This document shows, piece by piece, positions 1 to 39,957 of a stretch of DNA of 45,807 nucleotides (within the stretch, counting starts at the first letter, position 1; the number at the start of each line of letters is the position of its first letter). The stretch covers positions 1 to 45,807 of the forward strand of contig WRKV01000005.1 in assembly GCA_009777915.1 (NCBI GenBank), in the 5' to 3' direction. The notes below the pieces were generated by a model, which saw only the letters and a program-made list of their open reading frames with translations, ran no database searches and was not told where the DNA came from. The stretch comes from Bacteroidales bacterium. GTDB taxonomy: Bacteria; Bacteroidota; Bacteroidia; Bacteroidales; P3. The translations under genes and the position numbers were made by a program.

Positions 1-3000
1 GCAACAACCACCGACACTCTCAGAGCAAATATGCCGGCAGTAGAAGACCTCGAATTTTCCTGCACCTACACCCTCGACGGTTGTAGCGTTACGGCAACAG
101 CCCAAATCGAAAACTCACAATGTACACCACCAACCATGCCGGGAGGATTCACAGCAGACCTCGCGGCAATTTGCTTAGGCGATTCAACCATACTCCGCCT
201 TAGCAGTGGAGTACGAAACCAAGGAGAATGGGTGCTATACGCAGGAGGATGCGGAGACGGAACTCCGATCGCAAGATCCCACGAGAACCTTATAGGGAAC
301 GTAACTTTTACCGTAAAACCTACCCAAACCACAGAGTATTTTATTAGAGGCGAAGGCTGCGGAACAAACACCAGCTGCCAACAACTGACCATAACCGTGA
401 ACCCGTTGCCCAACGTGATTCAAGGTGAGAACGAGGTATGTGTCGGTGCCACCGCTACCGTTATCAACCTAACTCCGGGTGGAACATGGGAAGTAGGCGT
501 TTCAGGACATCTCGCCGTAGACGATCCGGCAGTGGGAACCGTCAGAGGTGTGATGGCAGGAACCGGTACTATATATTATGTACTCCCAACAGGATGCCGC
601 CGCGAAGGACAAATTACCGTGAAAGAGACGCCCGCAGCTATCGTTGGCGATACCAACCTTTGTGTGGGTAGCACCAGAATTTTTACATCTGCAACCCCTG
701 ACGGCATTTGGACTTCATCAGCATCACTTGTGGCAAGCCTAACCTCGCACACATCGGGAGAACTCACCGCAAACACCATCGGCACCACTGAGCTACGCTA
801 TACCCACTCGCTAACCGGTTGCGATATCATGAAAACCGTCAGAGTATGGCAGCAACCCATCAGCACAACAGGCGACCGCTCGGTATGCCGTGGGGAATCC
901 ATTCAACTCACCAACAACACAGTGCCAACAGGCGATGACGTCGGCGTATGGTCGATACAGTCAGGTGGTTCAGCAGCAACCATTTCAGCAACAGGCTTGC
1001 TAACCGCAAACTCCGGAACCAGCTCTGCAACGGTCATCGTGCAATACACCCTCGGACATTGCAGCGATACGTTCCGCGTTGATGTCAGACAGTTGCCGAA
1101 CCCTATCACAGGACCGACAACCCTCTGCGAGGAACAGGTGCAAACCTACACCAACACCGGAACATCAGGAACCTGGTCATCATCGAACACGGCAATCGCA
1201 ACCGTGAATGCCACTTCAGGTGAACTTACCGCTGTGTCAGCCGGAACGTTTGACCTGATCTTTACCTCGCCGTACGGATGTACCACACAATTAGCTATCA
1301 CCGTCAACCCATTGCCCGCCCCCATTGATGGTCCCAACGCTGTGGGCGTAGGCGGAACCATAACTCTCTCAACCACATCAACTGCCGGAGTATGGTCGTC
1401 GCTCAACCCAACCATCGCCTCAGTAGGTGCTTCCAACGGAGTGGTAACCGGTCTATCACAGGGAACGGCAGAAATCAGATATATGTACCCAACAACAGGT
1501 TGCTACAGAATCCACGAAGTTACCGTAAGTTCGTGTGATGTGATCACCTTGACCTCCGCAGCAGGCACTAATATACAAAATAATATCTGTAACGGATCAC
1601 CGATGACCTCCATCATCTACGAACTTAGCAACGGAGTTGCTACGACAACCCAAATTGCATGGTATAGAGACGACGGTACGCCCATGATCAGTCCGCCAAT
1701 GCCGGCAGGCATAAGCTACAACGGTACCACACACACCATCTCAGGATCGCCCACAGCGGTAGGCACATTTGAATACGTCATCACATCGACAGACCACGGA
1801 CCCGGCTGCGACCCTGTTACGGCAAGCGGTGAGATAACCGTGCACCCGCCTGTGTTAGCAGGAACTATTGCAGCAAGCCATAGCATTTGCGACGGAGATG
1901 ACCCGGAAGCGTTCACATCAACAGCAGCAGGCAGTGGAGGATCCCCAACATCCGAATACAGATGGCAGTTTTCGAACAACCAAACCGATTGGTTCGACCG
2001 ATCAGGAAGCAACTCAGTAACCTTCGACGATGCAACCACCCTCAACGTGGTTGATGGTAACCCTACACCATATTATTATAGGAGAGCATTCATAAACAGT
2101 TGCTCAACGGCTTACTCTAACATCTTGACGGTTACTGTGAACCCGGCTCCCGCAATACCTACAGCCGATGTTACACCCAACTCGGCGTGCTCGGGAGATC
2201 CCAACGGTATCATAGAAATCACAGCTCCAACAGGATCAGGCTATACCTATGCTATCGCCGGTAGTGATGGCGTTAGGAGTGCATTCCAAACTTCGCCTAT
2301 ATTCAATGGCAGAAGTTCGAGTGCCTATACTGTAACCGTGAGAAACATCCATGGTTGCGAAAGCACCCAAAGTTTCACCGTGGGCAGCAGTTCCGGTGCA
2401 CCGGTGATCACAGGTTTTAACGTTACACCTAACGACAGTATATGCAGCTCGGCATTGGCAACCACAACCGTAACCCTCACACCGCAATTCGACAAGGACG
2501 GCGGCGTTACATACTCCTATCTTTGGAATACAGGTGACGGCACCTCAACCATTGGAACCGCCGAAACCCTAACCAGAATCGGAGGAACCATCTCAGAAAC
2601 AACAACCTACCAAGTAACCGTGACCAACACGACTAACGGCTGTGATGCCAAAGGTAGTACAATCATCCACGTGATAGATCCGATTACCATCTCCGGTATC
2701 ACCGTATCGAAAGATACCATCTGTATCAACCAAACTGCACCTACTATTACGGTAACACCAAGCACATTGACAGGAGTAACCTACCAATGGCAAAGCTCGA
2801 CAACCGGAATCGGTGGCTACACCAATATCGCGGACAATGCGACAGCACAAATCTATACCGTGCCAAACGCCGCTGTGTCCGACTTGTGGTACAGATGTAT
2901 CGTTACCACCACTGCCGGCATTTGCCCATCGGTAACAAGCGATTCCGTACATGTGGGAGTGTTACCTATACCGGGTTTGCCAACAGTTACAGAGAACCCT

Positions 3001-6000
3001 GTACACGTTTGTGCTATAACAGGAACAGCTGACTTGGTGGCAACCACCAACGAGGCAGGATGCTGCATTCGTTGGTACGACAACAATGGCTTGCTTCAAG
3101 CCCAAACGAACTCCGGCGAAACGTTTACAACAGCCACATTCAGTGCTCCGAACTCGGTAACCTACCGTGCATACGCCGATAACGGAACCTGCTATTCGGC
3201 AGATTTTGTGGAGGTAGTAGCAACCATGCACCTGCCGCATATCCTCACACACGCAAGCGGAGATACAAACCTCGCTACGGCTTGTATTAACCAACCTTTT
3301 AGCGAAATCCACTACAACATCGGTGGAGGTGCTGCAAGTGCATCCATCGCTTGGACACCCCAAGGAACTACCACCGGACAACCAACAGGCATGAACCTCG
3401 AGGTGAACGGACAAGATGTTATCATAAAAGGTACACCTACCGTTGCCGGAACATGGAATTTCGAAATTACAACAACTCCATTTTCAGGAAACGAATGCCC
3501 AGTATTGAAACTAACCGGCAGACTAACCGTGTATCCAACCCCTGCTACACCTACGGCAAACATAACGCCTAACTCAGCTTGTGCAGGTGGTGCACCTGAC
3601 GGTAAAATTACCATCACAGCACCTTTGGGTACAGGCTTTGAATACTCTATCAACGGTGGTACAACATGGCAAACCACGCTCGAATTCGCAGGGCTGAACA
3701 CTGCCGACTACACCGTGATCGCCAAAAACCCGGAAGGTTGCCAAAGTAGTGCAACGTTCTCCGTACCGGGAAGTTCCGGTACTCCGGTTATCACAGGCAT
3801 CAGTATCGTAACAAACCCAACCGTTAACCCTGCCAACAACCTTTGCAGATCCGTGTTAAGCACCACAGAAGTAACCCTGACCCCACAATTCAACAAAGGT
3901 ACAGGCAACTACACCTATGTATGGTCTCCGGGAAGTGCTACCACAGAAGCACTCGTCTTACCCGTGAATAGCATCACAGGAACTACAACCTACACTGTAA
4001 CCATCACCAATACGGATAATCTCTGCTCAAGCAACAAAGACACCACCATTCAGGTGACAGAGCCTATTACAGCCAGCATTGCCACAACAACGCCGGAAAT
4101 CTGCGTTGGTGGAACAGCTCCGGTGATCAACCTAACGGCAAGCACCTCCACAGGAGTTAGCTATCTGTGGCAACGCACGACAAGCGACACCGAACTCGAA
4201 ACCGGCTCGTACCAAAACGTTGGCGGAGACGCAACCACCCAAAACTACACTGTGCCTAACACCCCGGCATCAGACCGTTGGTATCGTTGCACCATCACCA
4301 CAACCGACGGCATCTGTCCGCCGGTGGTGACGAATGCTGTGCAGGTGAAAGTGGTTGCCGCACCGGCTCAGCCCGTTAGAGATGACGGCTCCATCACTGC
4401 ACTTTGTCGCAATGAATCACATGCCTTTGAGGTTCAAGCAGTTACAGGTGTAACCTTTAACTGGACAGCACCGGCAAATTGGACAGCAACAACCGGAACA
4501 GGTACAAGCTTTACAACCGCTCCCGGAACAGGTGCTGCGAGTGGCAATATCGTTGTAACACCGACCAATTCCACCGGATGTACAGGAACTCCGCTAACCA
4601 TATTTGTGACGGTTAACGAACTCCCCGCTATACCTAATCGTACCGATGGATCCCCCAGTGCACTTTGTCGCGGTACAACACATACTTTTGCCGTGAGCTC
4701 CGTTTCGAATGTGAGTTTCGCATGGACGGCTCCGGACAACAACTGGACGCCTGAAACATTCTCAGGATTGGGTTTCCAAACTACACCCGGAACAGGTGCT
4801 ACCAGCGGCAATATCACCGTGACACCAACCAATACAACCACCAACTGTGTAGGACCGGCACTCAACATAGCCATTACCGTTAACGACATTCCTTCTATGC
4901 CTGTTCGCAACGATGGCACCATCAGTGCACTTTGCCCCGGTATAGCACATACCTTTAGTGTGACTACGGAATCAGGCGTAGGCTACGCATGGACGGCTCC
5001 GACAGGCTGGACATTAACCACCGGCGGACCGGCTGCAAATTTCTCAACCGCTCCCGGATCGAGTGCCGTAGCAGGCAATATCACCGTTACGCCGTCGTAT
5101 AGCAACGGCTGCGAAGGACCAAAACTCGAATTCGCCATAGGCATTCACACACCTCCGGCTATCCCGGTTCGCACCGGAACCACCGATGTAATTATTTGTC
5201 GCAACCTTCCGCACACTTTCAGCGTGATTCAAGAAACAGGCGTAACATACGAATGGATAGCACCGGATGCTAACTGGACGCCGTATTCAGTATCTACAGT
5301 AACGTTCTCAACCACACCGGGAGCAACGGCAGACAACGGCAATGTTACTGTTACCCCAACTTCCGCAGAAGGTTGTGTTGGAAGCCCGCTCGAAATACCG
5401 ATAACCATCGCTGCACCTCTCACTTTCACCATCCACCCCGACAACCACGATCTGGTTGTGCCCGTAGGTGTGGATTTCTGCCCCGATACCCTCTTTGTAG
5501 CCGCAACAGCAGGCATATTGCCAATAACCTTCGAATGGTACTTCACAGATGCCAATAACTATACCTCCAACGTAACAGCATTCACAACCGGAGTACAGTC
5601 TACACAGACCACTTCGAAAATTACCATTCCTAACAATGTGTTGGGCGAAAGATACTACCACGTGAAAGCAAGCAACGCCTGCCAATCCAACGTGCAGTCG
5701 AATATCAGCGGACTTAGAGAAGTGGCAGAGGATAAACTGCCCGCAAGCGAATGCAATTTCATTTCAGGTACAGACAATGCTAACATCGTGACGGCTGAAT
5801 TCGCCACCGGTACGCCAACTACCATTCCGGCTCGTGGAAACATAGCAGCACAAATCTGGTCGGATTTTGTAATCTCGCCACAATGCAACAAAACAAGCTA
5901 TAATGGTGGATCAGCACCTACCTTTAATGTGGATTGCAAAAGAAATGAGACACTTACCACTTTCCCAGGAGATTATTTCTCGTGGTGTGCGGTGATGAAA

Positions 6001-6378
6001 TATGCCCATATCCTTTGTCCTGCACCTTGGCGCGTGCCAAGCAAACAAGACTTTATCCACCTCGATATCCTTTTGGGTGGACAAGGTGTACAAGATAGTC
6101 GCAATCCATCTGATCAGGTGATCAGCGGACAAGCCTACACGAGTGGTTCAAATAATAACAACAACTCTGGCACCCACAATCCTCGTGGCGGAAGTTGGCA
6201 AGGTTCTCGATTTACAGCCAATGCGTCGGTGCTCACGGTGGCAAATTCAAACTACTGGTCGTCGACCGACGGTAATACACAAGGAGCATACACCCTGTAT
6301 TACGGAGGGAACCTCATCAGTCCGCAACCAACCAGCAATAAAGGCAGCGGTTTTGCCGTGCGTTGTGTGAAGGATTAA
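1..6378 (+). CDS. Giant secreted/surface protein with many Ig-like repeats and a C-terminal FISUMP (Fib_succ_major) domain; 5' end outside window
   Basis: Frame 1 is open from base 1 (ATTDTLRANM...). Repeated Ig-like modules, then C-terminal YFSWCAVMKYAHILCPAPWRVPSKQDFIHLDILLGG...NYWSST...GSGFAVRCVKD typical of FISUMP. Confidence 0.85.
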   Translation, partial: ATTTDTLRANMPAVEDLEFSCTYTLDGCSVTATAQIENSQCTPPTMPGGFTADLAAICLGDSTILRLSSGVRNQGEWVLYAGGCGDGTPIARSHENLIGNVTFTVKPTQTTEYFIRGEGCGTNTSCQQLTITVNPLPNVIQGENEVCVGATATVINLTPGGTWEVGVSGHLAVDDPAVGTVRGVMAGTGTIYYVLPTGCRREGQITVKETPAAIVGDTNLCVGSTRIFTSATPDGIWTSSASLVASLTSHTSGELTANTIGTTELRYTHSLTGCDIMKTVRVWQQPISTTGDRSVCRGESIQLTNNTVPTGDDVGVWSIQSGGSAATISATGLLTANSGTSSATVIVQYTLGHCSDTFRVDVRQLPNPITGPTTLCEEQVQTYTNTGTSGTWSSSNTAIATVNATSGELTAVSAGTFDLIFTSPYGCTTQLAITVNPLPAPIDGPNAVGVGGTITLSTTSTAGVWSSLNPTIASVGASNGVVTGLSQGTAEIRYMYPTTGCYRIHEVTVSSCDVITLTSAAGTNIQNNICNGSPMTSIIYELSNGVATTTQIAWYRDDGTPMISPPMPAGISYNGTTHTISGSPTAVGTFEYVITSTDHGPGCDPVTASGEITVHPPVLAGTIAASHSICDGDDPEAFTSTAAGSGGSPTSEYRWQFSNNQTDWFDRSGSNSVTFDDATTLNVVDGNPTPYYYRRAFINSCSTAYSNILTVTVNPAPAIPTADVTPNSACSGDPNGIIEITAPTGSGYTYAIAGSDGVRSAFQTSPIFNGRSSSAYTVTVRNIHGCESTQSFTVGSSSGAPVITGFNVTPNDSICSSALATTTVTLTPQFDKDGGVTYSYLWNTGDGTSTIGTAETLTRIGGTISETTTYQVTVTNTTNGCDAKGSTIIHVIDPITISGITVSKDTICINQTAPTITVTPSTLTGVTYQWQSSTTGIGGYTNIADNATAQIYTVPNAAVSDLWYRCIVTTTAGICPSVTSDSVHVGVLPIPGLPTVTENPVHVCAITGTADLVATTNEAGCCIRWYDNNGLLQAQTNSGETFTTATFSAPNSVTYRAYADNGTCYSADFVEVVATMHLPHILTHASGDTNLATACINQPFSEIHYNIGGGAASASIAWTPQGTTTGQPTGMNLEVNGQDVIIKGTPTVAGTWNFEITTTPFSGNECPVLKLTGRLTVYPTPATPTANITPNSACAGGAPDGKITITAPLGTGFEYSINGGTTWQTTLEFAGLNTADYTVIAKNPEGCQSSATFSVPGSSGTPVITGISIVTNPTVNPANNLCRSVLSTTEVTLTPQFNKGTGNYTYVWSPGSATTEALVLPVNSITGTTTYTVTITNTDNLCSSNKDTTIQVTEPITASIATTTPEICVGGTAPVINLTASTSTGVSYLWQRTTSDTELETGSYQNVGGDATTQNYTVPNTPASDRWYRCTITTTDGICPPVVTNAVQVKVVAAPAQPVRDDGSITALCRNESHAFEVQAVTGVTFNWTAPANWTATTGTGTSFTTAPGTGAASGNIVVTPTNSTGCTGTPLTIFVTVNELPAIPNRTDGSPSALCRGTTHTFAVSSVSNVSFAWTAPDNNWTPETFSGLGFQTTPGTGATSGNITVTPTNTTTNCVGPALNIAITVNDIPSMPVRNDGTISALCPGIAHTFSVTTESGVGYAWTAPTGWTLTTGGPAANFSTAPGSSAVAGNITVTPSYSNGCEGPKLEFAIGIHTPPAIPVRTGTTDVIICRNLPHTFSVIQETGVTYEWIAPDANWTPYSVSTVTFSTTPGATADNGNVTVTPTSAEGCVGSPLEIPITIAAPLTFTIHPDNHDLVVPVGVDFCPDTLFVAATAGILPITFEWYFTDANNYTSNVTAFTTGVQSTQTTSKITIPNNVLGERYYHVKASNACQSNVQSNISGLREVAEDKLPASECNFISGTDNANIVTAEFATGTPTTIPARGNIAAQIWSDFVISPQCNKTSYNGGSAPTFNVDCKRNETLTTFPGDYFSWCAVMKYAHILCPAPWRVPSKQDFIHLDILLGGQGVQDSRNPSDQVISGQAYTSGSNNNNNSGTHNPRGGSWQGSRFTANASVLTVANSNYWSSTDGNTQGAYTLYYGGNLISPQPTSNKGSGFAVRCVKD

Positions 6379-6401: not shown

Positions 6402-6440
6402 AAAAAAAAAATGAAATGCTTTGCATTTCATTTTTTTTTT
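6402..6440. terminator. A-tract/hairpin/T-tract terminator, likely bidirectional
   Basis: AAAAAAAAAATGAAATGC-TTT-GCATTTCATTTTTTTTTT inverted repeat directly after the FISUMP gene. Confidence 0.75.
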
Positions 6441-27941: not shown

Positions 27942-28077
27942 GTGTTAATCAAGATGCAAAGATACGGAAATTTTTTGGAATATGCAAGTCATTTTTGACG
28001 CTGCATCCGTCACGTCGAGCGGCGCCACGCAGTGGCGAAGTCGAGACATCTCCCGGCTATTGACCGTTCCCGAATTT

Positions 28078-28105
28078 GTAGGGGCGACGCATGCGTCGCC
28101 CCTAC
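28078..28105. repeat. 28-bp perfect palindrome
   Basis: gtaggggcgacgca/tgcgtcgcccctac. Confidence 0.95.
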
Positions 28106-28125
28106 GGCGATTGTCGCGAATGTCC

Positions 28126-28153
28126 GTAGGGGCACAAAATTTTGTGCCCCTAC
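28126..28153. repeat. 28-bp perfect palindrome, same family with different arms
   Basis: gtaggggcacaaaa/ttttgtgcccctac. Confidence 0.95.
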
Positions 28154-28168
28154 AATTCACCATTCAAC

Positions 28169-29176
28169 CTAATTATCCCTCACACACCGCAGGGCGAACC
28201 CGTGATCCTTATTGACGTAGTACTGCGGGCTGACATACGACGCATGGTAGTACTGGCGGAACGCATCCGTGGCACTGTACTCTGAGGACGACCAGTAGTT
28301 CGAAGTCGCAGTCGACAGATCGTTCGCGTACGCAGCAAAGCGGGAGCCACCCCAAGTTCCTGCGTCGGTGCCGGTGTACTTCTGATCAGTCCCCGTCCCC
28401 GTGAAACCATTCTCACCGGAATCTACATTGCGATTTTCGCCATCGCCTCCTAAAAGAATATCCAAATCGATAAAATCCTGTCGAGTAGGCACCCGCCAAG
28501 GCGAAGGACAAAGTATATTGGCATGTTTCATCACAGCACACCACGAGAAGTAATGAACTCCGGAACCATTGGTGGAAGCACGACAATCCACATTGAAATT
28601 CGGGTCAGCACCGCCATTGTAAAAGTCGCCTCTTGGCGTGCATTGGGGTGAAGTTACCGGTCCCGACCAAATTTGCTGCGCCTTGCCGTTGGCAGCAGGA
28701 ATAATCCATTCCTGAGCAGTTGCAAAACTTGCCGAGGTGATGGAGACACGGTTTCTTTCCGCTGTACAAAAGTCGCAGCCCGTTGGCGACGGTGTAGCAT
28801 TGAGTGTTATGCTACCATGCAGCAACTCCACACCACAGGTATTACTCACAGTGTAATGGTGCGTGCCGATATCTGTCGGTGCACCTTTAATAGAAACAGG
28901 CCACGCGTATTCTCGGTCGCCGAGCGGAGTCGAGGCGTCGCCGGAAACTGTAATGCCGGGAGGCGTGCCAATCGACGCAAAACGTGTACCATCCGTCCAC
29001 CAATTGATGATTAGAGTTCGTCCAATCACTGACGGAAATTCGATAGGGTCTATCTGTTCGCCTGGGCAAAGAGTTTGATGCAAGGGGGCTGATGGGCACC
29101 ACTGAGGAATAGGACAATGAGCAAAACTTTTGGTTCCAAAAGTTGCGAAAACTAAGATTAGGGTGATTTTTTTCAT
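28169..29176 (-). CDS. Secreted FISUMP-domain protein (FISUMP-A)
   Basis: Signal peptide then HCPIPQWCPSAPLHQTLCPG; C-terminal YFSWCAVMKHANILCPSPWRVPTRQDFIDLDILLGG...NYWSSSEYSATDAFRQYY...GFALRCVRDN. Confidence 0.85.
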   Translation of the reverse strand: MKKITLILVFATFGTKSFAHCPIPQWCPSAPLHQTLCPGEQIDPIEFPSVIGRTLIINWWTDGTRFASIGTPPGITVSGDASTPLGDREYAWPVSIKGAPTDIGTHHYTVSNTCGVELLHGSITLNATPSPTGCDFCTAERNRVSITSASFATAQEWIIPAANGKAQQIWSGPVTSPQCTPRGDFYNGGADPNFNVDCRASTNGSGVHYFSWCAVMKHANILCPSPWRVPTRQDFIDLDILLGGDGENRNVDSGENGFTGTGTDQKYTGTDAGTWGGSRFAAYANDLSTATSNYWSSSEYSATDAFRQYYHASYVSPQYYVNKDHGFALRCVRDN

Positions 29177-36391: not shown

Positions 36392-37303
36392 TTACTTGAC
36401 ACACCGTAGCACGTACCCGCTACCTTTGCTGCCCCAATTCTGTGGGTAGATGTAGCCACCTGTATTAAAACTCAAGAGGAACCCGAGAGCCGTACTACTC
36501 TCCGACTGCGACCAGTAGATTCCAAAGAAACCTTGATTGAGCAACGAGCCGTCCGAGTAGCAGCTACCTCCGTAGGCACCACCCCAAATAGTGAGATATG
36601 TGTTGAGTTGAACCTGCCAAGACGTATCCTTAACCGTTTCTTGATAACGATTCTGACCGTTAAAATCTAAAGCAATATCCAAATCTATAAAATCTTGTGA
36701 AGTAGGAACTCGCCAGCCATCAGGACAAATTTCTGCGACTTCTTTTACTGCACGCCAAGAAAATAAATCGCCTTTTTGACCCGGATTGGAACGACAATCA
36801 ATGTTGAAACCACTTGTTGAGTTACCACCACTGAAAGTAGTTTTGCTACTGCAATCAACCGTCTGAACAGCATCCGACCACTCTTGCGTAATACTATTTC
36901 CGGAAATTTTCCAAGTGAAATCGGTGGCAAAAGAGGCTTTACCAAGAGATGTTTCCCAAGTGGTTTTACTTACGGTTACAACGCAAGTAGCAGTTTTTTC
37001 ACCGTCTTGCGTGGTAACGATAATGGTTGCATTTCCGGCACTCACCGCAGTAACTAAACCATTTGAATCGACTGTTGCTACGACTGTATCACTACTACTC
37101 CATGTTACCGTTTTGTTGATTGCATTGTTGGGCAACACAGTAGCAATAAGCATAAGCGTGTCATCAACGTTAAAGATGGTAGCGATCTGGTTTAGCGTTA
37201 CGCTTTCAACAGCGGTTGATTCGGTTTCTCGTTGGGGCTCTTTGTCACAAGAAATTGCAAATGCAAACGATAAAATCATCACAGAATAAAGAAGGTTTTT
37301 CAT
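36392..37303 (-). CDS. Lipoprotein with BIG2 Ig-like domain and C-terminal FISUMP domain (FISUMP-C)
   Basis: FAISCDKEPQ lipobox-like; VTLNQIATIFNVDDTLMLIATVLPNNAINKTVTWSSSDTVVATVDSNGLVTAVSAGNATI; C-terminal YWSQSES...GSGYVLRCVK. Confidence 0.85.
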   Translation of the reverse strand: MKNLLYSVMILSFAFAISCDKEPQRETESTAVESVTLNQIATIFNVDDTLMLIATVLPNNAINKTVTWSSSDTVVATVDSNGLVTAVSAGNATIIVTTQDGEKTATCVVTVSKTTWETSLGKASFATDFTWKISGNSITQEWSDAVQTVDCSSKTTFSGGNSTSGFNIDCRSNPGQKGDLFSWRAVKEVAEICPDGWRVPTSQDFIDLDIALDFNGQNRYQETVKDTSWQVQLNTYLTIWGGAYGGSCYSDGSLLNQGFFGIYWSQSESSTALGFLLSFNTGGYIYPQNWGSKGSGYVLRCVK

Positions 37304-38520: not shown

Positions 38521-38523
38521 ACC

Positions 38524-38551
38524 GTATGGGTCGAAAATTTTCGACCCATAC
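38524..38551. repeat. 28-bp perfect palindrome (30 bp including flanking c/g)
   Basis: gtatgggtcgaaaa/ttttcgacccatac. Confidence 0.95.
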
Positions 38552-38565
38552 GCCCCTACTATTCA

Positions 38566-39957
38566 CTATGGCACATCCCGCACACAACGCAGAGCGAACC
38601 CTCCGCTCTTAGCAAGGCTGTTATGAGGGCCGACGTAGGACGCAGTCAGGCTCAGACGGAAGCCATACGTAGCACTGCTCTCTGACGAGGACCAGTAGCG
38701 CGAAGTCGCATCCGTGAGATCGCCCTGACTTGCAGTAAAGCGGGAGCCACCCCAGGTTCCGCCGTTGTTGGTTGCGGGATTGCCCGAACCGGTGTCCCCG
38801 ATATACCAAGCAACCTGAGCTTCTATCGTCTTATCATTACTTGGCACCGAGGCAGGGTCAGCATTGCCCGTACCGTCTGCCCAACGGTTATGTCCCGTGC
38901 CCCCCAAAGCCACATCTAAATTGACAAAATCCTGGCAGGTAGGTACACGCCAATCACCTGGACAGAGTTGGCCTTGATAACGAATCATGAAACAGAAATT
39001 GAAGTAATCCCCATCAAAACCATTAGTGGCATTGCGACAATCGGTTGTGATACCATTCATAGTGAATGTTGATCGAGAGTTACACGTGACAGTGCTCACA
39101 GACCCCGACCATCGCTGCGTAATCCCATTGCCGGAAATTGTGCGAGCATGTGTTTCTATATTGGGAGATCCGCCCCAACTAACAGCACCGATGTCAGGGA
39201 CATAATTTTCCCCTGCACATAGCGACAAGTCGCCTGGTGTACCAGGACAAGCGGGAACAACAATATGCTTGCCGCTCGTGTTGCTTGTAGTTGCCGTGCT
39301 CCCACAACGGTCGGTAGCCACGGCGTAGTAGTAGATGCCGTCAGTGTTTACTGTATTTGCAGGCGGTGTAAAAGTGTTGGTTTGTGCACCGTTGACAGTG
39401 CCCATGCTTATGCCGCCTGTGGTGCTTGCTGAGGTGTTCGAATACCATTGTATGGTAATCGGTGGCATGCTGCCTGCGGGTTCGGCTGTAAGAGTGAGTG
39501 GTGCGAATGCCGTGCCTATGGTGGTATAGCGTTCGCCGGTTGGTGTGACCGTGCCAATGGTGGGCGGTTCAGCATTAAGGGTAATGCTACCATGTAGCAG
39601 CTCCACGCCGCAAGTATTGCTTACCGTGTAGTGGTGCGTGCCTGCAACCGTTGGTGCTCCTTTAATAGAAACAGGCCATGCGTATTCTCGGTCGCCGAGC
39701 GGATTTGAGGCATCGCCGGAAACCGTAATGCCGGGAGGAGGAGTGGGCCTAAAGTTGGTGCGTGTCTCGTTCGTCCACCAGGTGACGATCAAGGTTTTAG
39801 CTATTACCGATGGAAATTCAATAGTTTCTATCGTGTCGCCGGGACAAAGAGTTTGATGCAAGGGTGCTGATGGACACCACTGCGGGATTGGACAATGAGC
39901 AAAACTTTTGGTTGCAAAAGCTGCGATAAAGATTAAGATTAGGGTGATTTTTTTCAT
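38566..39957 (-). CDS. Secreted FISUMP-domain protein (FISUMP-B), paralog of 28169-29176 with an extra Ig-like module
   Basis: MKKITLILIFIAAFATKSFAHCPIPQWCPSAPLHQTLCPG...RYWSSSESSATYGFRLSL...GGFALRCVRDVP. Confidence 0.85.
   Translation of the reverse strand: MKKITLILIFIAAFATKSFAHCPIPQWCPSAPLHQTLCPGDTIETIEFPSVIAKTLIVTWWTNETRTNFRPTPPPGITVSGDASNPLGDREYAWPVSIKGAPTVAGTHHYTVSNTCGVELLHGSITLNAEPPTIGTVTPTGERYTTIGTAFAPLTLTAEPAGSMPPITIQWYSNTSASTTGGISMGTVNGAQTNTFTPPANTVNTDGIYYYAVATDRCGSTATTSNTSGKHIVVPACPGTPGDLSLCAGENYVPDIGAVSWGGSPNIETHARTISGNGITQRWSGSVSTVTCNSRSTFTMNGITTDCRNATNGFDGDYFNFCFMIRYQGQLCPGDWRVPTCQDFVNLDVALGGTGHNRWADGTGNADPASVPSNDKTIEAQVAWYIGDTGSGNPATNNGGTWGGSRFTASQGDLTDATSRYWSSSESSATYGFRLSLTASYVGPHNSLAKSGGFALRCVRDVP

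What the first reader, a model, noticed from the sequence alone, without database searches (positions are those of the whole stretch)
38575..38760. DGR-like variable region at the C-terminus of FISUMP-B
The last 62 codons of FISUMP-A (28175-28360) and FISUMP-B align without gaps. Frozen codon blocks (TGG GGT GGC TCC CGC TTT; GCG ACT TCG; GGG TTC GCY CTG CGK TGT GTG) alternate with about 20 non-synonymous codons. Many variable codons differ at positions 1 and 2 but keep a third-base pyrimidine (AAC/CGC, TAC/AGC, GAT/TAT, CAT/ACT, TAC/AAC, AAT/GCT), as expected if AAY codons of a template were randomised at adenines. Serine at variable sites is AGY, whereas nearly all conserved serines are TCN. 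FISUMP-type domains are, to my knowledge, among C-lectin-like folds reported as DGR targets. About 12 synonymous differences argue against a very recent shared template, so this may be an old or multi-template system. No reverse transcriptase is in this window.
Basis: partly seen in the sequence, partly recalled or inferred. Interest (0 to 1): 0.78.

Follow-up and report, generated by a model that had tools for sequence, protein, structure and literature searches.

The report
Dispersed targets of a mutating retroelement
The ends of these bacterial surface-protein genes look like ones deliberately scrambled by a diversity-generating retroelement that sits elsewhere in the same genome, and dozens of similar genes appear to share the same treatment, giving one gut bacterium a large set of hypervariable recognition proteins.

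Summary
The two C-terminal blocks are gene ends on the minus strand and align without gaps (130 of 186 bases identical). The window's genome has one reverse transcriptase over cut-off, on a 6.2-kb contig with two adenine-rich template repeats and two Avd-like genes. Template TR1 differs from a variable repeat on contig C176 at 18 of 195 bases, 15 of them at template adenines. The window's blocks belong to another class of 22 to 29 repeats whose variable columns are adenine-type (0 of 20,000 permutations). The best pairs match 97-98% outside adenine columns, differ at about 60% within them, and have host genes only about 70% alike just upstream. This fits templated, adenine-directed rewriting. 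A sibling species carries a template of this class beside its own RT and Avd. The matching template is missing from this fragmented assembly. FISUMP domains were already known DGR targets. The scale is unusual: about 41 repeats in two classes with the signature in a 2.3-Mb genome. Activity, and RT action in trans, are inferred. VR-B is older or uses an unsampled template.

The parts
38578..38763 (-). VR-B: 62-codon variable repeat at the C-terminus of FISUMP protein P0002 (core from the TGG codon: 38578-38754)
   Evidence: Ungapped class II member; against a template inferred from the other 20 repeats, 26 of 51 adenines and 25 of 135 other bases differ
28178..28363 (-). VR-A: 62-codon variable repeat at the C-terminus of FISUMP protein P0001 (core 28178-28354)
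   Evidence: Same test: 20 of 51 adenines and 9 of 135 other bases differ; nearest repeat C110 (L034): 6.9% core difference, 51% at adenine-type columns
38578..38601 (-). Conserved 3' block of VR-B (GGG TTC GCT CTG CGT TGT GTG CGG), candidate initiation-of-homing region
   Evidence: Near-invariant codons 55-62 in 22 repeats; homology stops directly after it
28178..28201 (-). Conserved 3' block of VR-A, same role proposed
38566..39957 (-). P0002, 463-aa FISUMP protein with signal-peptide-like N-terminus (target gene)
   Evidence: Fib_succ_major E 1.5e-9
28169..29176 (-). P0001, 335-aa FISUMP protein with the same N-terminal family (target gene)
   Evidence: Fib_succ_major E 2.5e-11
38522..38553 (-). 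Loopless palindrome 24 nt after VR-B, possible cruciform or terminator
   Evidence: 15-bp stem; the family is enriched near FISUMP ends but not exclusive to them
28125..28154 (-). Loopless palindrome 23 nt after VR-A; a second copy at 28077-28106
   Evidence: 14-bp stems
36395..36817 (-). Third FISUMP domain of the window (class III repeat), in a 303-aa Big_2 protein at 36392-37303
   Evidence: class III signature weak (5 members)
5926..6372 (+). Fourth FISUMP domain, C-terminus of a protein of at least 2115 aa; diverged singleton repeat

Best explanation
VR-A and VR-B are variable repeats of a diversity-generating retroelement (DGR). A template RNA carrying AAY codons at defined sites is copied by an error-prone reverse transcriptase with Avd. 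Adenine positions come out randomised, and the cDNA replaces the homologous C-terminal block of a FISUMP (C-type-lectin-like) surface protein. The RT and Avd genes lie on contig C131 of the same genome and act in trans on dispersed target genes. The window's repeats use class II templates that are missing from the assembly. Shown: the RT, TR and Avd locus, adenine-directed TR1-VR pairs, the class II signature, VR cores homogenised among diverged host genes, and a class II template in a sibling species. Inferred: that the C131 RT serves class II, that it acts today, and that the proteins bind variable ligands.
For: RT over cut-off on C131. TR1, Avd1, RT, then TR2 and Avd2 on the opposite strand; Avd matches in PHROGs 'Avd protein of DGR', Pfam bAvd and NCBIfam DivGenRetAVD below cut-off. 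TR1 vs C176 repeat: 18 mismatches of 195, 15 at adenines; vs C149: 26, of which 22 at adenines. Class II: adenine-plurality columns mean 1.37 bits vs 0.42-0.66; 0 of 20,000 permutations. Non-circular check: columns under adenines of the sibling template are more variable (1.30 vs 0.53-0.62 bits, p = 6e-11), and 231 of 231 pairs differ more there than elsewhere. L034 vs L039: 2.1% core difference, 56% at adenine columns, 204 of 292 identical upstream; L016 vs L045: 2.8%, 61%, 178 of 255. Sibling G018: its template vs two of its own repeats, 23 of 32 and 22 of 35 mismatches at adenines.
Against: No class II template is in the assembly: the template-signature pattern finds only the two C131 repeats in G000, and no class II repeat has more than 59% adenine at its hypervariable columns. 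The class II 3' tails differ between genes and lack the tail shared by TR1 and the C176 repeat, so homing into them is not demonstrated. VR-B's excess at adenines is weaker than VR-A's, and neither sub-template explains it. No reads or second strain were available to show current activity. TR2 has no close repeat in the assembly. The AlphaFold model of the domain was poor (pLDDT 36).
Confidence: 0.88

Rival explanations
1. Ordinary diversifying selection on a duplicated gene family; no retroelement is involved in these two genes.
For: The genes are paralogues with a shared N-terminus, VR-B carries 25 differences of 135 at non-adenine positions from the inferred template, and no class II template was found.
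Against: Selection on amino acids does not pick adenines nor leave third bases fixed at hypervariable codons. Repeat cores are 97-98% identical between genes only about 70% alike upstream. The variable columns match adenines of a sibling's template.
Confidence: 0.04
2. Class II repeats are a retired archive: rewritten by a DGR in the past, but the class II template is lost and the repeats now only drift.
For: Template absent from the assembly; VR-B and several others have diverged at non-adenine positions; tails are not shared with known templates.
Against: Some pairs have almost identical cores (2.1% and 2.8%) with about 60% difference at adenine columns, which suggests recent rewriting. The assembly is 189 contigs at 94% completeness, so an RT-adjacent or repeat-rich template could easily be missing.
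Confidence: 0.25
3. Gene conversion between paralogues shuffles the C-termini, without reverse transcription.
For: Repeat cores are homogenised with sharp edges.
Against: Conversion copies adenine-type columns too, yet these differ in at least about 44% of columns in all 231 pairs of the 22 repeats.
Confidence: 0.02

Closest known systems
Treponema denticola TvpA-type DGR (PMC4891356, passages read)
   Same: One RT with targets scattered over the chromosome, mostly far from the core locus; adenine-directed differences; predicted surface proteins.
   Different: Two to seven targets per isolate and one template there; here about 41 repeats in two significant classes and at least two templates.
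Fib_succ_major / DUF1566 DGR targets of human gut metagenomes (PMC4159848, passages read)
   Same: The same Pfam domain at the C-terminus as the diversified region; Big_2 domains also seen.
   Different: Reported from metagenome assemblies (9 Fib_succ_major proteins in all), not as a genome-wide family.
Bordetella phage BPP-1 DGR (PMC3240598, passages read)
   Same: RT, Avd, adenine-rich template, C-terminal repeat, inverted repeat within about 35 bp downstream of VR.
   Different: Phage-borne, with its target beside the RT; 8-bp stem with a tetraloop, against loopless 14-15-bp palindromes after the window's repeats.
Thiohalocapsa PB-PSB1 DGRs (PMC10907252, passages read)
   Same: Several template classes in one genome and evidence that some targets are diversified in trans.
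   Different: Nine loci, 15 targets linked to conflict systems; here one RT locus found and secreted-looking FISUMP proteins.

Membership tests
Diversity-generating retroelement | Reverse transcriptase of the DGR type | tested here: met
   RVT_1 E 1.7e-18; PHROG reverse transcriptase E 1.1e-85; 37-39% identical to RTs of three Bacteroides phages, a group in which PMC8143477 reports DGRs (seen as a search listing only); best solved relative 8ub7, recalled as the BPP-1 RT. The IGNLTSQ and YVDD motifs are visible; their DGR meaning is recalled. No RT tree was built.
Diversity-generating retroelement | Avd accessory protein | tested here: met
   Two copies; PHROG Avd E 5.8e-11 and 1.3e-13; Pfam bAvd over cut-off for Avd2 only; NCBIfam below cut-off for both
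Diversity-generating retroelement | Template repeat beside the RT | tested here: met
   TR1 and TR2 on C131
Diversity-generating retroelement | Adenine-specific TR-to-VR differences | tested here: met
   TR1 pairs: 15 of 18 and 22 of 26 mismatches at adenines
Diversity-generating retroelement | The window's repeats have a matching template in the same genome | tested here: not met
   Not found in the assembly; a class II template exists in sibling G018. The window's genes are therefore called targets by signature, not by a matched TR-VR pair.
Diversity-generating retroelement | Hairpin or cruciform just downstream of the VR | tested here: inconclusive
   Palindromes 23-24 nt after both window repeats, but the same family also follows ordinary genes
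Diversity-generating retroelement | Ongoing retrohoming | not testable with these tools
   No reads or second strain available
FISUMP (Fib_succ_major, PF09603) | Profile match over the curated cut-off | tested here: met
   P0001 44.6 bits, P0002 38.8 bits, cut-off 33.9
C-type-lectin fold | Structure | tested here: inconclusive
   Model pLDDT 36; no solved relative by sequence. The fold is taken from PMC4159848 and PMC8144416.

The most novel reading that the evidence does not exclude
One RT locus with two Avd copies and several template classes keeps some 40 dispersed, secreted FISUMP receptors hypervariable in trans: a bacterial recognition repertoire of gene-family size, in which template class and host gene are re-assorted, and with more target genes than the DGR target sets in most papers read here.
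Probability: 0.4. Interest if true: 0.8.

Novelty: new member of a known kind. Interest (0 to 1): 0.62.

Why it matters
DGRs are usually seen with one or a few targets. If one RT serves dozens of dispersed receptors, it would make testable how trans homing picks its targets, and how a symbiont uses a large hypervariable surface repertoire in a gut. It also warns that FISUMP families and contig ends in such metagenome bins may be retroelement targets rather than ordinary paralogues.

Tried and rejected
Ordinary selection and gene conversion were tested and rejected. The idea that the palindromes after the repeats are DGR-specific was tested: of 50 listed places (the genome has 53) 16 lie within 60 nt downstream of a FISUMP match, against 0.1 expected by uniform placement, but others follow ordinary genes, so they are not specific. 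Assigning VR-B to a Y-type or L-type sub-template did not reduce its non-adenine mismatches (27 of 136 and 30 of 143). The structure prediction failed (pLDDT 36) and was not used for a fold search. No relative of the RT was found in viral contigs by peptide patterns. The paper PMC5758913 was not held.

Rows dropped: the repeat set (69 sequences, two of them the C131 templates) required an LRCVR-like end and a tryptophan motif within the loci fetched, so FISUMP matches without that end are not in it. The 22-repeat class II set was chosen by at least 60% ungapped identity to VR-A; clustering gave 29. In one search I compared 50 of 53 palindromes with 78 of 79 FISUMP matches, leaving out the C131 template.

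Full report
What is there. The two blocks are C-terminal ends of two FISUMP proteins on the minus strand, P0001 (28169-29176) and P0002 (38566-39957). In the register 28178-28363 and 38578-38763 they align without gaps, with 130 of 186 bases identical and 23 non-synonymous and 13 synonymous codon differences. The window holds two further FISUMP domains (36395-36817 and 5926-6372). The whole genome has 79 matches at E <= 1, one of which is a template repeat.

The machinery. The genome (2.33 Mb, 189 contigs, 94.25% complete, 1.68% contamination) has one RVT_1 match, over the cut-off, on contig C131. That 6201-bp contig reads TR1 (1947-2156), an Avd-like gene (2275-3006), the RT (3069-4103), then on the other strand TR2 (4199-4408) and a second Avd-like gene (4809-5708). 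Its left end is the start of another gene with an N-terminus like that of P0001. The RT matches PHROG reverse transcriptase (E 1.1e-85) and both Avd-like proteins match PHROG 'Avd protein of DGR'. In a phage collection the RT is 37-39% identical to RTs of three Bacteroides phages. Its best solved relative by sequence is 8ub7 (E 1.2e-26), which I recall as the BPP-1 enzyme.

The C131 system rewrites at adenines. Against TR1, the repeat on C176 has 18 mismatches of 195, 15 at the 53 adenines; the repeat on C149 has 26, 22 at adenines. For C176 the homology starts sharply before the TTTTGGGG block and ends 20 bases after the last codon.

The window's repeats carry the same signature. Twenty-two repeats aligning to VR-A without gaps were compared by column. 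Adenine-plurality columns average 1.37 bits of entropy, others 0.42-0.66; 30 of 44 adenine columns and 7 of 142 others exceed 1.4 bits; 0 of 20,000 permutations within codon position reach the observed value. At the 19 codons hypervariable at positions 1 and 2, the third base is a pyrimidine in 379 of 418 cases. With VR-A and VR-B left out, a template was inferred from the other 20: VR-A differs at 20 of 51 adenines and 9 of 135 other bases (p = 3.7e-7), VR-B at 26 of 51 and 25 of 135 (p = 3.1e-5).

Two tests separate a retroelement from selection. First, an independent template: the RT contig of sibling G018 carries an adenine-rich repeat of the same class. Two repeats of G018 differ from it mostly at adenines (23 of 32 and 22 of 35). 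In the window's genome, columns lying under its adenines are more variable (1.30 against 0.53-0.62 bits; p = 5.8e-11); all 231 pairs of repeats differ more at those columns than elsewhere. Second, homogenised cores: L034 and L039 differ at 2.1% of non-adenine-type columns and 56% of adenine-type columns, while the 300 bases upstream are 204 of 292 identical; L016 and L045 give 2.8%, 61% and 178 of 255. The adenine-type columns in that count were chosen by entropy and adenine content, so the sibling-template version is the unbiased one; by it the same two pairs differ at 6.6% and 3.6% of other columns and 40% and 52.5% of adenine columns. For L016 and L045 identity falls off at both edges of the repeat; for L034 and L039, and for VR-A and L034, it stays high in the first bases upstream and falls off only downstream.

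Scale. Clustering 69 repeat sequences gave class II with 29 members, class I with 12 repeats plus the two templates, a class III of five, and 21 others in small groups or alone (others by subtraction). Classes I and II are significant for adenine (Fisher p 5e-9 and 1.5e-11), class III weakly (0.0013). So about 41 repeats carry the signature; 41 is a count of assembled places, and collapsed or split strains could change it. The signature is a property of each class as a group; a minority of members may be retired. The same three kinds of 3' tail occur in classes I, II and III, so template class and downstream sequence are not tied.

Relatives. In 101 genomes of the family, an RT match at E <= 1e-10 was found in 16, the own genome included. 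In the same genus, G018 and G039 have close RTs (75-76% identical) and 32 and 34 FISUMP matches; G006 and G029 have no RT match and 16 and 15. Other genera show 0 to 7 (which lists 78 of the 101). A template pattern found one place per template: two on C131, one each in G018 and G039, none in G006 and G029.

What is missing. No class II template is in the assembly, and no class II repeat is a hidden template (at most 59% adenine at hypervariable columns). TR2 has no close repeat. VR-B is 17-21% different outside adenine columns from its nearest repeats and fits neither sub-template, so it is either retired or uses an unsampled template. Current activity is untested.

Downstream elements. Loopless palindromes follow both window repeats by 23-24 nt. 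Their stems vary with compensation between copies, which recalls the BPP-1 finding that stem structure rather than sequence matters (PMC3240598, passages). But the family has 53 copies in the genome and also follows ordinary genes, so terminators or a dispersed repeat are equally possible. The C176 repeat and a G018 repeat share another downstream stretch followed by an inverted repeat.

Literature. FISUMP was reported as a DGR target domain in human gut metagenomes (PMC4159848, passages). Multi-target and trans-acting DGRs are known: Treponema denticola, two to seven targets (PMC4891356, passages); Thiohalocapsa, 15 targets (PMC10907252, passages); cyanobacteria, 58 DGRs with 90 targets (PMC7517822, passages); and one report of 91 TR-VR pairs in a Pseudomonas genome with six templates, 21 merged repeats lying in one ORF (PMC6642488, passages). 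Cellular targets are mostly surface proteins with C-terminal lectin-like repeats (PMC8144416, abstract and sections 8 and 9). Searches for DGR with FISUMP or with termite gut, and two on multi-target DGRs, listed no paper that by title or abstract start describes such a family-wide target set; the library holds open-licence papers only.

Noticed in passing
L002 2275-3006 and 4809-5708: Both Avd-like proteins have an N-terminal region resembling MutS domain I (22.7 bits, over the cut-off of 20.6, and 18.5 bits, under it). The second also ends in a proline- and glutamine-rich tail.
   Followed up: partly
L002 4199-4408: TR2 is an orphan: apart from TR1, the nearest repeat in the assembly differs at 59 of 195 bases, 22 of them at TR2's 51 adenines, far from the TR1 pattern.
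   Followed up: partly
window 28077-28106, 28125-28154, 38522-38553; 53 places in G000: A family of loopless GC-rich palindromes (GTAKGGG...CCCMTAC) enriched after FISUMP genes but also after ordinary genes.
   Followed up: partly
L002 2991-3072 and tails of several FISUMP genes: Heptamer tandem repeats (AGTGAAT and AGTGATT) between Avd1 and the RT and after many target genes.
   Followed up: no
L008 tail and L223 tail: A near-identical 19-base stretch (CTTGATTCCTYGAATTTTG) then an inverted repeat downstream of the template-matched repeats in two species, absent after the templates.
   Followed up: no
L119 (own C3), G018 contigs C3, C11 and C22, G039 contig C1: Very long open frames (1481 to 6034 aa) with many tandem FISUMP domains.
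   Followed up: no
window 31-6378: A protein of at least 2115 aa ending in a diverged FISUMP repeat, followed by an A/T-rich hairpin at 6402-6440.
   Followed up: no
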